Shown here: positions 1 through 15,201 of the stretch, one piece after another
Position numbering within the stretch: the stretch's first letter is position 1
Layout of the letters: every line of letters starts with the position of its first letter
From: Pseudonocardia autotrophica
Lineage (GTDB): Bacteria; Actinomycetota; Actinomycetes; Mycobacteriales; Pseudonocardiaceae
Length of the DNA stretch: 64,000 bases
Reading direction: 5' to 3'
Assembly: GCF_003945385.1 (NCBI RefSeq)
Contig: NZ_AP018920.1
Span: 3,968,001-4,032,000, forward strand
The notes under the pieces: generated by a model
Databases searched by the model: none
Told to the model about the DNA's origin: nothing
The model's input: only the letters and a program-made list of their open reading frames with translations
Program-made: the position numbers and the translations under genes

Positions 1-53
1 TCCGCGGCCGCGGCCCGGCCGACGGCGCCGTAGGCGCCCAGCACCGCGATCAT
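1..53 (-). CDS. Partial NAD(P)-binding reductase-like protein (5' end only)
   Basis: Only the first 17 codons are inside the window. The ATG at 51-53 overlaps the TGA of the TE-containing NRPS (50-52) as ATGA, so it is translationally coupled and belongs to the siderophore operon. The visible N-terminus, MIAVLGAYGAVGRA, is a beta strand followed by GxxGxxG, the start of a Rossmann dinucleotide-binding fold. In pyochelin- and yersiniabactin-type loci a thiazolinyl-imide reductase reduces one thiazoline to a thiazolidine, so a reductase here fits. The visible residues look at least as much like a saccharopine-dehydrogenase-type fold. The exact family cannot be settled from 17 residues. Confidence 0.6.
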   Translation of the reverse strand, partial: MIAVLGAYGAVGRAAAA

Positions 54-14600: not shown

Positions 14601-15201
14601 CGGAGTCCATACCGGACAGGTCGACGACCCGCACCGGCGGCTCCCCACCGGGCGGGGTGATGATCTGGGTCCCGTCGCCGGGGAACCGGGCCCGGAGCAT
14701 CCCGTGCCGGTCAACGACCTCTCGCACGGCACGTGCCAGCCGGTCGGGGTCGACACCGGCGCCGTCGAACTCCAGGTAGGCATGGCAGCCGACGCCACCC
14801 AGCGGCTGCCCGTCACCACGCCCCACCCAGTACGCCTGCTGGACCGAGGTCAGCGGGAACGGCGCGGCGGGGTCGGCCGGCGGCTGCCGTGCGGGGGCGG
14901 GTGCGGGAGCCACGTCACGCATCAACCGCCACCAGGCGCGCGGGGTCGGGGTCTCGACGAGCGCGACCAGGTCGACGGTGATCCCCCGACGCCGCCACGC
15001 GCTGCGCAGCGTCATCAGTCGCAACGAGTCCATGCCGACCGCGAAAAGATCGTCGTCGGGCCCGACCGACCCTTCCTCCGCCCCTACCGAAGCGGCGATC
15101 TCAGCGCACAGGAAATGCAGTCCGGACACATCTCCGGAACTGCCGGATCCGGCTCCCCCGACCGGCACAGAACTGTCGCTGCCGACGATTTCTGTCGACA
15201 T
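5671..15201 (-). CDS. NRPS: ArCP-(Cy-A(Cys)-PCP)x3
   Basis: This is a 3176-aa starter-plus-three-module NRPS. An aryl carrier protein domain (GMDS, S59) is followed by Cy1 (from about 114), A1, PCP1, Cy2, A2, PCP2, Cy3, A3 and PCP3, each module about 1020 aa. All three A domains give the pocket D-L-F-N-L-S-L-V-W, a close variant of the cysteine code. Cy2 and Cy3 have intact DxxxxDxxS (DNIVLDAAS, DNLVLDAAS). Cy1 has D246 and D251 but Gly at the Ser position. No epimerase or methyltransferase is inserted in A1-A3, unlike PchE. The C-terminus ends in an acidic tail (GGRDDYEEGEL) that may pair with the docking domain of the next protein. By homology it condenses an aryl acid with three cysteines and cyclises each to a thiazoline. 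The ATG at 15199-15201 follows a GGGGG Shine-Dalgarno stretch and an iron box. The aryl-AMP ligase is not in the window. Confidence 0.95.
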   Translation of the reverse strand: MSTEIVGSDSSVPVGGAGSGSSGDVSGLHFLCAEIAASVGAEEGSVGPDDDLFAVGMDSLRLMTLRSAWRRRGITVDLVALVETPTPRAWWRLMRDVAPAPAPARQPPADPAAPFPLTSVQQAYWVGRGDGQPLGGVGCHAYLEFDGAGVDPDRLARAVREVVDRHGMLRARFPGDGTQIITPPGGEPPVRVVDLSGMDSGKARAERERLRGELSHRRLDAGAGEVLAVTLCLLPGGCTRLMVEVDFLVADVLGLRILLADLATAYRSDDPVALPSLGIDFPTCLAHRAQADGHRADARAYWAARVPELPSGPRLPLAVDPATVLEPRFVRRSTRLSALSWTALQDRCRSAGITPAVALAAAYAEVLAGWSEEPRFVLNLPVFDRDEFHPDVMSVVADFTGLVLLEVDCGRPLSFLDRAREIQDRLRRDLAHASYSGVEVLRDLTRAGDGRPASAPVVFASALGGDLVGDDFRETFGELDWMVSQTPQVWLDNQVVELGGGLYVSWDAVQELFDEGVLDAMFAAYSEILHGLADGDWDRRLVAGAPPAQRRVRAAINATAPVPGPVDPAGLLHTGMFDRAAREPERVAVPGVATYGELAERALRVAGYLAGEGVVPGDAVAVSLPRGVDQVVAVFGVLAAGAAYVPVSPELPPARRDRMRELAGVVCTLDADTRMDAEPLPGPVPVDPARSAYVIFTSGTTGDPKGVEVTHAAVMNTVADVCARFGIGPDDRVLTVSALDFDLSVFDLFGLLSAGGQVVTVAPESWRDAAAWAGLVAGHRVTVWNTVPALLDMLLTAAPPDSLESLRTVLVSGDWVGLDLAPRLAIAAPRARLVALGGATEAAVWSNFQPVPVPVPERWTSVPYGRPLAGQRFRVVDDTGRDRPDQVPGELWIGGAGVAVGYRGDPELTAAKFVTDDGQRWYRTGDLGRYWPDGTLEFLGRADTQVKVRGHRIELGEIDTALQADPEVAAGVTVVVGERTRRRLVAYVTPACVTPADGSAPDPTGLADRLRRVLPDHAVPGRIVVVDALPLTGNGKIDRAALETLAEHQGPGTSAAPLGELEKQVAAVWEELLGIASVARDDSFFALGGDSVVATRMVARLTADGVTGAGLGALFASPTLAGYCAGLTAGDARTDTGVVADPASRYEPFPTTDVQRAYLVGRREDLVLGGIGTHYYGELDLPEVDVAAWERAWNIVIARHDMLRAVVDDDGTQRVLPEVGRFTVPVEHGIAALDPMREQMSRRVFDPARWPLMEARAVHYLRDGEPRTRLGIGLDNIVLDAASVMQLFTELDALVADPAATLPEPAVTFRDYLVQGAPDPARVAAAETYWRSRLDDLPPAPPLPLAADPAGIARPRFTRRADTLSPGEWSAIREQAVRAGVTPSAVLLACYAEVLSRWSGAAGLTVNLTLFDRRPVHADIDRVLGDFTSLLLVGCRAVPGECWLDRVRRLQEQLWRDLDHRETSAVWVMRELARATGRPETTMPVVFTSALGLDADTLRGAPSLEFGITHTPQVWLDNQVVELSGGLHVSWDAVQDLFDDGVLDTMFTAYTGLLRSLADASWSQPLGPTLPERQEQVRAAANSTGQAHDPALLHAGMFEWAAREPERVAVPGALTYGELADRALRVAGYLVGEGVRPGDAVAVSLPRGVDQVVAVFGVLAAGGVYVPVSPELPQARGDRMRERAGVVCTLDAGSRMQDTAALPGPVAVDPDRPAYVIFTSGTTGDPKGVEVTHAAAMNTVADVSARFGVGVEDRVLAVSALDFDLSVFDLFGLLSAGGQVVTVAPELWRDAAAWADLVAEHRVTVWNTVPALLDMLLTAAPPDSLESLRTVLVSGDWVGLDLAPRLVAAAPQARLVALGGATEAAVWSNFQPVPVPVPERWTSVPYGRPLAGQCFRVVDPLGRDCPDHVTGELWIGGAGVAVGYRGDPELTAAKFVPHDGQRWYRTGDLGRYWPDGTLEFLGRADTQVKVRGHRIELGEIDTALLTHHSVDAAVAVATGDRGRRRITAFVTPTTAQLDVLPAHLTALLPEHMVPARIVAVDALPLTGNGKIDRAALDTLAEHHGLPTRDAAPAGEIEQRVAALWAELLGVAAVGRGDDFFALGGDSIVATRMVARLAAGGIAGAELGRLFTAPVLADYCTALHTGIREPVAGVVADPEHRHTPFALTDVQRAYWIGRQTGPALGGIGTHYYGELDLPEVDVAAWERAWNIVIARHDMLRAVVDDDGTQRVLPEVGRFTVPVDHGPDGIDRMRAELAHRVPDPARWPLIAARAVHHERDGERRTRLGIGLDNLVLDAASIMLLLAELDALTTDPAALPPAPEITFRDYLTQVAAAPDGQEKARDHWRARIAEDTLPPAPNLPLAVDPATVQRPEFTRRSFALDTQAWSALRDRCRAAGVTPAAALLGCYAEVLGRWSGSAALSIMLTLFERRPVHPDIDRVLGDFTTLLPVAWRADPADTGTDRIRRLQEQMWRDLDHRDASAVWVLRELARSRGDADAAIPVVFTSALGLGDSAPTMPALEYGVSQTPQVWLDNQVVESAGGLYLSWDAVEALFDDGVLDAMFDDYTGLVTSLTTSGDDWPRLDTLPAGTRAVRAAVNSTGPAFEPVLLHAGMFDRAAREPERVAVPGVLTYGELAGRALCVAGYLAGEGVVPGDAVAVSLPRGVDQVVAVFGVLAAGAVYVPVSPELPSARRDRMRELAGVVCSLDPAALDAALRVDPLPEPVAVDPSRTAYVIFTSGTTGDPKGVEVTHAAAMNTVADVCDRFGVGGDDRVLTVSALDFDLSVFDLFGLLSVGGQVVPVAPESWRDAAAWAGLVAEHRITVWNTVPALLDMLLTAAPAGSLESLRTVLVSGDWVGLDLAPRLAVAAPHARLVALGGATEAAVWSNFQLVPVPVPERWTSVPYGRPLAGQRFRVVDPLGRDCPDHVPGELWIGGAGVAVGYRGDPELTAAKFVTDRGQRWYRTGDLGRYWPDGTLEFLGRADTQVKVRGHRIELGEIETALLAHHSVDAAVAVATGDRGRRRITAFVTPTSADPAPLRDHLAAALPEHMVPARIVAVDALPLTGNGKIDRPALETLAEHDTTTPTGPPPEGDTEIRLAALWSELLGTGPVARDDRFFALGGDSLTATRLVELVSTTFGTRITMRDFVTDPTIRGTAALLTADLDGGRDDYEEGEL
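8489..8656. repeat. Exact 168-bp repeat, copy 1 (inside Cy3)
   Basis: This stretch is identical to 11534-11701 over all 168 bases, 3045 bp apart. It encodes the N-terminal part of the third heterocyclisation domain. The surrounding modules repeat with a period of about 3.05-3.07 kb. Confidence 0.9.
11534..11701. repeat. Exact 168-bp repeat, copy 2 (inside Cy2)
   Basis: Identical to 8489-8656. It encodes the same part of the second heterocyclisation domain. Perfect identity inside otherwise diverged Cy domains suggests recent module duplication or gene conversion. Such repeats also tend to cause assembly errors. Confidence 0.9.

What the first reader, a model, noticed from the sequence alone, without database searches (positions are those of the whole stretch)
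50..15201. Assembly line predicted to make an aryl-capped chain of four consecutive cysteine heterocycles
The two NRPSs contain one ArCP and four Cy-A-PCP units. All A domains carry cysteine-type codes (three D-L-F-N-L-S-L-V-W, one D-L-Y-N-L-S-L-I-W), the last with an inserted methyltransferase, then TE. Pyochelin uses two cysteines; yersiniabactin uses three with a PKS module between. A colinear line with four cysteines and no PKS would give a tetra-thiazoline/thiazolidine siderophore, topologically like the mirabazole/thiangazole tetra-heterocycles but with an aryl cap. I do not know a described siderophore of this exact architecture.
Basis: partly seen in the sequence, partly recalled or inferred. 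Interest (0 to 1): 0.85.

Follow-up and report, generated by a model that had tools for sequence, protein, structure and literature searches.

The report
Iron-scavenger assembly line using four cysteines
An actinobacterium carries genes that probably build an iron-grabbing molecule from one aromatic cap and four cysteines, and the cap appears to be borrowed from the vitamin K2 pathway rather than being the usual salicylate.

Summary
Window 50-15201 (minus strand) encodes ArCP-(Cy-A-PCP)x3 and TubC-Cy-A(MT)-PCP-TE. All four A domains carry cysteine codes and neither protein has a PKS domain. The operon runs 7.6 kb off the left edge: two reductases (PchK-like and PchG/Irp3-like), a type II thioesterase, an aryl-AMP ligase, an O-methyltransferase and an extra MenD. 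To the right lie an ECF transporter and an IrtAB-like pair. An iron-box palindrome sits just upstream of NRPS1.

The ligase belongs to a monophyletic clade with a one-residue deletion at or next to DhbE Ser240. Of ten other neighbourhoods of that clade fetched, one has MenB and MenD, eight an isochorismate synthase and four the same O-methyltransferase type. I propose a cap derived from 1,4-dihydroxy-2-naphthoate, as in karamomycins, ecteinamines and a predicted Sporomusa cluster.

The four-cysteine line is not unique: Nonomuraea turkmeniaca has the same architecture, and at least five of 120 listed NRPS homologues hold four Cys modules in one protein. Verdict: a new variant of pyochelin-type siderophore synthesis. 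Untested: cap identity, and that all four rings form.

The parts
5671..15201 (-). NRPS1, 3176 aa: ArCP-(Cy-A[Cys]-PCP)x3
14926..15105 (-). ArCP (carrier with GMDS motif)
   Evidence: domain HMM; motif read from the sequence
13537..14859 (-). Cy1; DFLVADVLG and PVVFAS motifs (PchE Cy1 also has PVVFAS)
12067..13566 (-). A1, code DLFNLSLVW (Cys)
10462..11757 (-). Cy2; DNIVLDAAS, PVVFTS
9025..10491 (-). A2, code DLFNLSLVW (Cys)
7414..8712 (-). Cy3; DNLVLDAAS, PVVFTS
5971..7443 (-). A3, code DLFNLSLVW (Cys)
50..5674 (-). NRPS2, 1874 aa: TubC_N-Cy-A[Cys](MT)-PCP-TE, the PchF domain order
   Evidence: PchF order recalled
4109..5440 (-). Cy4; DLLVCDYTS, PVVFTS
2600..4138 (-). A4, code DLYNLSLIW (Cys)
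1625..2494 (-). Methyltransferase inserted in A4 (SAM motif LEVGAGVG), predicted N-methylation of the last ring
65..979 (-). Type I thioesterase, predicted release as the acid
1..53 (-). First codons of the saccharopine-dehydrogenase-like (PchK-type) reductase; the gene is G000:C1:3966926-3968053. Further left, outside the window: thiazolinyl imide reductase C1:3965862-3966929, type II thioesterase C1:3965083-3965865, aryl-AMP ligase C1:3963458-3965071, O-methyltransferase C1:3962439-3963461, MenD C1:3960437-3962170 (after a gap of about 270 bases)
15217..15235 (.). Iron-box-like palindrome TGAAGTTAGGCAAACCTAA, 16 of 19 to the recalled IdeR/DmdR consensus, just upstream of NRPS1 and between NRPS1 and the ECF genes
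15429..16007 (+). ECF-transporter component (ABC_cobalt family)
16064..17965 (+). Double ECF ATPase (within ORF 15434-17965; start approximate)
17767..18765 (+). ECF T component (CbiQ family); ORF start approximate
18729..19529 (-). TetR-like regulator (weak Pfam match, below cut-off)
19568..21376 (+). Fused ABC transporter half, best solved relative IrtA (mycobactin importer)
21292..23163 (+). Fused ABC transporter half; among solved siderophore importers related to IrtB and YbtQ

Best explanation
This is an iron-regulated siderophore gene cluster of about 31 kb (MenD to the second ABC gene). MenD boosts or diverts isochorismate into the menaquinone route. Housekeeping enzymes finish 1,4-dihydroxy-2-naphthoate (DHNA), and the O-methyltransferase probably caps its 4-OH. 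The deletion-type ligase adenylates this naphthoate and loads it on the ArCP. Three Cy-A-PCP modules of NRPS1 and one of NRPS2 then add four cysteines, each cyclised to a thiazoline. One or both reductases reduce at least the last ring, the embedded methyltransferase N-methylates it (as in PchF), and the TE releases the acid. Export is unknown; the IrtAB-like pair and perhaps the ECF system re-import the metal complex. Predicted product with O-methyl cap, one reduction and N-methyl: C25H26N4O4S4, [M+H]+ 575.091. Shown: genes, domains, codes, synteny, motif. Inferred: cap, ring number, reduction and methylation sites, metal.
For: Four Cys codes and Cy motifs. Two reductases, type II TE, ligase and O-MT follow NRPS2 with short overlaps or gaps, then MenD. 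MenD is an extra copy: 56 of 60 genus genomes have a menD hit and only 4 of 60 have two, this genome among them; a 77-sequence tree puts it outside the genus clade. In G447 a MenD remnant (76%) directly abuts ABC1/ABC2 orthologues (78-79%), with no other DNA match to this locus apart from ABC paralogues, tying MenD to this island. The ligase clade with the loop deletion is monophyletic, 27 of 121 tips, support 1.0. Ser240 and Asn235 contact the DHB hydroxyls in DhbE (PMC10296737 passage); two of three alignments place the missing residue at Ser240 itself (one position later). G913 (Nocardiopsis composta) has this ligase beside MenB (over cut-off), MenD, the O-MT and a thioesterase, with ECF genes about 12 kb on. 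Of 10 other fetched neighbourhoods 8 have an isochorismate synthase homologue, 7 within 1 kb of the ligase and G967's about 20 kb away; all six tested exceed the isochorismate synthase cut-off and fall far below the salicylate synthase cut-off. G967 (N. turkmeniaca) has the same 3+1 NRPS with this ligase, O-MT, isochorismate synthase, both reductases and ECF/ABC genes. Iron box; IrtA-like transporter. Published DHNA-cap prediction in Sporomusa linked to karamomycins, and 2-naphthoate of ecteinamines (PMC12971057 passages).
Against: No product or enzyme assay exists. Only MenD of the DHNA route is in this cluster; menB is elsewhere and menC/E/H were not searched. Cluster MenD has Ala in the PGSR motif where 118 of 120 listed homologues have Ser (PGARNT in own and one 79% relative), so its substrate could differ. 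In G913, the only other MenD/MenB case, the deletion-type ligase is not in the Cy-NRPS operon, which lies about 20 kb away with its own HNFPMVSPG ligase. The other 11 genomes with this ligase each have a single MenD, not on the ligase stretches; their isochorismate synthase could also feed salicylate or DHB. One deletion-type ligase (G575) sits beside what reads like a large modular PKS. Only 4 of 10 neighbourhoods have the O-MT. Cy1 has DxxxxDxxG and Ala for Thr in PVVFTS, although PchE Cy1 shares the Ala. No iron box in the G967 stretch (best 13 of 19). ABC2 scores higher with eukaryotic exporters than with IrtB/YbtQ.
Confidence: 0.58

Rival explanations
1. Salicylate- or DHB-capped tetra-thiazoline: the ligase loads salicylate made elsewhere or taken up, and MenD is an incidental passenger.
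For: The ligase scores highest against a salicylate-AMP ligase and DhbE among solved structures and matches DHB_AMP_lig below its cut-off (604 of 724 bits). Equibactin production needed supplied salicylate (PMC3672683 abstract passage). Isochorismate synthase in sister clusters could also serve salicylate or DHB.
Against: The pocket loop differs from both salicylate (ACPG) and DHB (SSPG) ligases in all 27 clade members. No chorismate-binding enzyme lies in the cluster; the genome has four, all elsewhere. MenB+MenD adjacency to this ligase type recurs in G913, and G447 keeps MenD next to the ABC genes.
Confidence: 0.22
2. The line makes fewer than four rings: Cy1 only condenses (leaving a linear aryl-cysteine), or a module is skipped or the chain released early.
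For: Cy1 has DxxxxDxxG and PVVFAS instead of DxxxxDxxS and PVVFTS.
Against: PchE Cy1 also reads PVVFAS, and PchE is known to form the first thiazoline (recalled). The three other Cy domains have canonical motifs. G967 keeps the same four modules.
Confidence: 0.25
3. The product is a metallophore for Co, Ni, Zn or Cu, or mainly an antibiotic, rather than an iron siderophore.
For: An ECF transporter with an ABC_cobalt component is divergently adjacent and has homologues in the G913 and G967 neighbourhoods, though not in G932 or G968. Ecteinamines are reported to bind Ni, Co, Zn and Cu (recalled; full text not held). Karamomycins A and C are reported cytotoxic (PMC9310018 passage).
Against: Iron-box palindrome in the NRPS1/ECF intergenic region. 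The 14-mer occurs at 3 places in the 7.5 Mb genome (reversed-pattern control 1), another lying before a substrate-binding protein that reads like a siderophore binder. Similar sites lie at cluster promoters in G913, G932 and G968, without a shuffle control. ABC1 best matches IrtA.
Confidence: 0.2

Closest known systems
Pyochelin / enantio-pyochelin (PchD-PchE-PchF-PchG/PchK)
   Same: Aryl-AMP ligase, ArCP-Cy-A start, last module Cy-A(MT)-PCP-TE, PchG/Irp3-type reductase; saccharopine-dehydrogenase PchK is listed in the enantio-pyochelin cluster (PMC3377617 passage)
   Different: Four cysteine modules instead of two, both reductase types together, no PchE-type epimerase insert in modules 1-3 (insert recalled), deletion-type ligase, O-MT and MenD, no salicylate synthesis genes
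Karamomycins (Nonomuraea endophytica) and the predicted Sporomusa termitida DHNA metallophore cluster (menFDEB)
   Same: 2-naphthyl-thiazol(id)ines; menaquinone genes in place of salicylate synthase (PMC12971057 passages). Nonomuraea proteins fall in the same ligase clade
   Different: The karamomycin producer was unsequenced according to that paper; ring count there not checked here. This cluster carries only MenD of the men genes, and four cysteine modules
Ecteinamines (Micromonospora, Wu et al. 2023)
   Same: 2-Naphthoate-capped nonribosomal metallophore (named in PMC12971057; menaquinone origin recalled)
   Different: Other residues (recalled: 4-methyloxazoline, reduced amide, cysteinal); paper not held
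Nonomuraea turkmeniaca cluster (G967 contig 569; no publication looked for by name)
   Same: ArCP-(Cy-A-PCP)x3 plus Cy-A(MT)-PCP-TE, all Cys codes, both reductases, deletion-type ligase, O-MT, type II TE, ABC pair, ECF genes
   Different: Isochorismate synthase instead of MenD; different gene order; no iron box found
Yersiniabactin and equibactin
   Same: ArCP-Cy-A start, thiazoline chemistry, Irp3-type reductase; equibactin also has a saccharopine-dehydrogenase-family protein (PMC3672683 passages); YbtPQ-like ABC pair
   Different: Yersiniabactin has a PKS module and one A domain for three cysteines (recalled); salicylate cap
Mirabazole / thiangazole tetra-heterocycles
   Same: Chain of four cysteine-derived rings (recalled)
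   Different: No phenolic aryl metal-binding cap there; alpha-methyl-cysteine units; not siderophores (recalled)

Membership tests
Pyochelin-type thiazoline siderophore synthetase | ArCP followed by Cy-A(Cys)-PCP modules | tested here: met
Pyochelin-type thiazoline siderophore synthetase | Terminal Cy-A(MT)-PCP-TE (PchF order) | tested here: met
Pyochelin-type thiazoline siderophore synthetase | Thiazolinyl imide reductase | tested here: met
   TIGR01761 233 bits, cut-off 188.8
Pyochelin-type thiazoline siderophore synthetase | Salicylate supply (salicylate synthase or isochorismate synthase plus lyase) in the cluster | tested here: not met
   No PF00425 hit in the cluster; four elsewhere in the genome. 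A lyase was not searched for
Pyochelin-type thiazoline siderophore synthetase | Exactly two cysteine modules | tested here: not met
   four
Naphthoate-capped (karamomycin/ecteinamine-type) metallophore cluster | Menaquinone-pathway gene(s) within the cluster | tested here: met
   Extra MenD, 404 bits, cut-off 244.2
Naphthoate-capped (karamomycin/ecteinamine-type) metallophore cluster | Ligase activates a 2-naphthoate | not testable with these tools
   Indirect only: loop deletion and gene neighbourhoods
Naphthoate-capped (karamomycin/ecteinamine-type) metallophore cluster | Fuller men set (menFDEB) as in Sporomusa | tested here: not met
   MenD present; no isochorismate synthase or menB in the cluster; menE not searched with its own model
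Yersiniabactin-type | PKS module between cysteine rings | tested here: not met
   No PKS domain in NRPS1 or NRPS2
Iron-regulated siderophore locus of actinobacteria | Iron box at the biosynthetic promoter | tested here: met
   Window 15217-15235; consensus recalled
Iron-regulated siderophore locus of actinobacteria | Product binds ferric iron and is induced by iron limitation | not testable with these tools
   needs culture

The most novel reading that the evidence does not exclude
A siderophore family caps four consecutive thiazoline/thiazolidine rings with an O-methylated 1,4-dihydroxy-2-naphthoyl group. It draws that cap from the menaquinone pathway through a dedicated, horizontally acquired MenD (with a Ser-to-Ala change in its PGSR motif) and a ligase clade recognisable by one deleted pocket residue. 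Iron acquisition would then compete directly with respiratory quinone synthesis for isochorismate.
Probability: 0.42. Interest if true: 0.75.

Novelty: new variant of a known kind. Interest (0 to 1): 0.6.

Why it matters
If right, it gives (1) a sequence signature, HNW[TP][LM]T-HG in the aryl-AMP ligase, for a chelator class for which PMC12971057 says no detection rule has yet been designed (passage); (2) candidate gene clusters for the karamomycin class in Nonomuraea; (3) a predicted four-ring metallophore with an exact mass to look for; and (4) a testable link between iron starvation and menaquinone supply in one operon.

Tried and rejected
Housekeeping MenD by accident of location: rejected because the genome has a second menD grouping with the genus clade; the men-type genes around that copy are my reading of protein starts. 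MenD relatives in the 84,980-species collection: the 80 kept loci are 55% identical or less in the best segment; 0 of 80 show either reductase or the O-MT at E<=1e-8, and NRPS matches there reach 114 bits at most (flanks 10 kb at best, several contigs short). Salicylate synthase in sister clusters: tested and rejected for G967, G968, G963, G957, G575 and G992; not tested for G932 and G940. Cy1 as dead because of PVVFAS: dropped after PchE Cy1 showed the same residue. RNA elements in window 1-30000: none at gathering score. Second MenD hits in G420 and G446: no NRPS hit on the fetched stretches. Papers on consecutive or tetra-thiazolines: 4 listings, none on a siderophore by title or abstract start. 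Search with at least 5 of 6 naphthoate, siderophore, thiazoline and menaquinone terms: one paper. That I found no description of this combination rests on listings in an open-access library only (20 of 128 papers listed).

Script caveats: Cys-code calls by pattern failed (mostly blank) and were not used. misread one residue of A3; one search is the check. Counts (26 of 120 homologues with at least three Cy and three Cys-type A domains; 5 of 120 with four and four) are lower bounds, from 120 listed of 1108 hits. The MenD tree sequences were picked by script and not each checked; both trees were midpoint-rooted. Of the 12 deletion-type ligase genomes, G920 and G942 were not fetched.
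Full report
WHAT IS THERE. NRPS1 (window 5671-15201, minus) is ArCP-(Cy-A-PCP)x3. NRPS2 (50-5674, minus) is TubC docking-Cy-A with inserted methyltransferase-PCP-TE. Code residues taken from aligned columns are DLFNLSLVW for A1-A3 and DLYNLSLIW for A4. All four condensation domains have the Cy motif DxxxxD. Cy1 is unusual (DxxxxDxxG, PVVFAS), but PchE Cy1 also has PVVFAS and PchE is known to make a thiazoline (recalled).

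The window is G000:C1:3968001-4032000 of a 7.5 Mb, two-contig genome. The operon continues left. Overlapping NRPS2 and each other by four bases are a saccharopine-dehydrogenase-like reductase (C1:3966926-3968053) and a thiazolinyl imide reductase over its family cut-off (C1:3965862-3966929). Then follow a type II thioesterase (C1:3965083-3965865, Thioesterase 166 bits), an aryl-AMP ligase (C1:3963458-3965071), an O-methyltransferase of the Methyltransf_2 family (C1:3962439-3963461) and, after about 270 bases, MenD (C1:3960437-3962170, 404 bits, cut-off 244). The ligase and MenD starts follow the lengths of database entries P0125 and P0245. Beyond MenD is a convergent SNF2-type helicase gene. 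Right of NRPS1, divergent, are an ECF transporter (ABC_cobalt component, double ATPase, CbiQ), a weak TetR match and two fused ABC halves. The first half matches IrtA best among solved structures (437 bits). The second scores higher with two-half eukaryotic exporters (376 bits) but also matches IrtB and YbtQ at about 320 bits.

CLUSTER LIMITS. In G447, another genome of the genus, DNA of a MenD lacking its first quarter (residues 150-552 of 580 match, 76% identical) lies directly beside orthologues of the two ABC genes (78-79%). No other DNA match at E<=1e-10, apart from paralogous ABC cross-matches, joins that 20 kb to the 92 kb around our cluster. The simplest reading is an internal deletion in a former copy of this island, which makes MenD one end and ABC2 the other. 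An assembly fault in that draft genome cannot be excluded. MenD is not housekeeping: of 60 genus genomes 56 have a menD at E<=1e-50 and four, including this one, have two hits. The second copy here (C1:6386715) groups with the genus clade, while the cluster copy lies outside it near Streptosporangiaceae and G913 MenDs (its nearest grouping weakly supported, 0.43).

IRON. TTAGGCAAACCTAA lies at 15222-15235, 20 bases upstream of NRPS1. It is the only hit in the window with up to one mismatch (0.03 expected; 3 of 100 shuffles had one). The 16-mer GTTAGGNNNNCCTAAC occurs at this one place in the genome (reversed-pattern control 0). The 14-mer occurs at three places (control 1). One of the others precedes a substrate-binding protein that looks like a siderophore binder, and the other lies near a small protein that reads like MbtH, by my reading of the sequences. 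Best matches to the recalled 19-base consensus lie at cluster promoters in G913 (15/19 and 14/19), G932 (14/19) and G968 (15/19), but not in G967 (best 13/19); no shuffle control was run for these (gene starts).

THE CAP. No chorismate-binding enzyme lies in the cluster (four elsewhere), so no salicylate route is encoded there. The ligase belongs to a clade reading HNW[TP][LM]T-HG where the DHB- and salicylate-type relatives read SSPG or [AG]CPG. 27 of 121 tips form one clade with support 1.0. Numbered against DhbE, the missing residue is Ser240, which with Asn235 contacts the DHB hydroxyls (passage in PMC10296737); one search agrees and one search puts the gap one residue later. Asn235 is kept. 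By my own geometry argument, the second ring of a 2-naphthoate would lie at the 3/4 positions of the benzoate, next to residue 240. In a sample of 394 class genomes 98 had a ligase at E<=1e-130; among 30 loci taken, 23 showed a readable motif and 2 (own and G575) the deletion type. In 341 genomes of the G575 family 13 had E<=1e-188 and 12 of 13 the deletion type.

NEIGHBOURHOODS OF THE LIGASE CLADE. I fetched 10 of those 12. Eight of 10 have an isochorismate synthase homologue: seven within 1 kb of the ligase, and G967 about 20 kb away at the other end of the cluster. The six isochorismate synthases tested score 277-313 bits against a 224.75 cut-off for TIGR00543, and 83-104 against 325.15 for salicylate synthase. 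In G913 MenB is 469 bits (cut-off 380) and MenD 424. There a separate NRPS set with its own ligase (HNFPMVSPG) lies about 20 kb away. So the MenB/MenD block goes with the deletion-type ligase, the O-methyltransferase and the thioesterase, but not with the Cy-NRPS operon itself; what that block makes is open. Four of 10 (G913, G967, G932, G968) have the O-methyltransferase type and the same four a thioesterase like ours; ours and those of G913, G967 and G932 are 45-53% identical in the O-methyltransferase. Against this: the G575 ligase sits beside what reads like a large modular PKS, and in G957, G963, G940 and G920 the Cy-NRPS genes lie about 36-43 kb from the ligase.

FOUR CYSTEINES ELSEWHERE. 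N. turkmeniaca (G967) has the same 3+1 line, all Cys codes, with both reductases, type II TE, O-MT, deletion-type ligase, ABC pair and ECF genes, plus an isochorismate synthase. Among 120 listed NRPS1 homologues (of 1108), 26 have at least three Cy and three Cys-type A domains and five have four and four in one protein, e.g. Pseudonocardia endophytica P0005. The reductase pair is common: 25 of 30 loci from the order search, own included, hold both.

MECHANISM. See best explanation. Shown: gene content, domains, codes, co-inheritance, promoter motif. From family knowledge: Cy cyclisation, PchG/Irp3 reduction, PchF-type N-methylation, TE release. Inferred: the naphthoate cap, its O-methylation, four closed rings, iron as the metal. 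Expected masses come from one search, which reproduces pyochelin C14H16N2O3S2 as a check.

KNOWN OR NEW. PMC12971057 (passages read) predicts a DHNA cap for a Sporomusa cluster with menFDEB, links it to karamomycins, and names ecteinamines as 2-naphthoate metallophores. So the idea of a naphthoate cap is not new. New here, as far as my searches go, are the four-cysteine line with a MenD-only supplement, the ligase-clade signature and the recurring gene set. I found no publication of this combination in the listings.

Noticed in passing
L154 (G447:C112) 2701-7544: Relic: MenD lacking its N-terminal part abuts ABC1/ABC2 orthologues, as if the whole NRPS part had been deleted
   Followed up: partly
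L002:5437-7170 (cluster MenD): PGARNT replaces the PGSR motif; shared only with one 79% relative among 120 listed homologues. Function of the change unknown
   Followed up: partly
L151 and L153 (G446, G420): Two relatives carry a second MenD with an O-MT homologue (40-42%) and a gene that reads like isochorismate synthase nearby but no NRPS hit; possibly another naphthoate pathway
   Followed up: no
   Followed up: partly
L186, L205, L209, L211 (Nonomuraea-type genomes): Deletion-type ligase beside isochorismate synthase, with what reads like a large modular PKS in L186. Candidate loci for karamomycin-like products
   Followed up: partly
P0018, P0019, P0022, P0023, P0026: 5.1-5.2 kaa NRPSs, listed without a name, with aryl carrier, four Cy modules and embedded methyltransferases, resembling a thiangazole-like layout
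   Followed up: no
window 15429-18765: ECF transporter of the cobalt type next to siderophore genes, with homologues in the G913 and G967 neighbourhoods; its cargo is unclear
   Followed up: no
G000:C1:4180231-4181019: A second MenB-family protein over the family cut-off, with several weaker MenB-family hits close by
   Followed up: no
G000:C1:5876534 and 5929412 (L247, L248): The only two other TTAGGNNNNCCTAA sites in the genome, near a substrate-binding protein and a protein that reads like MbtH
   Followed up: partly
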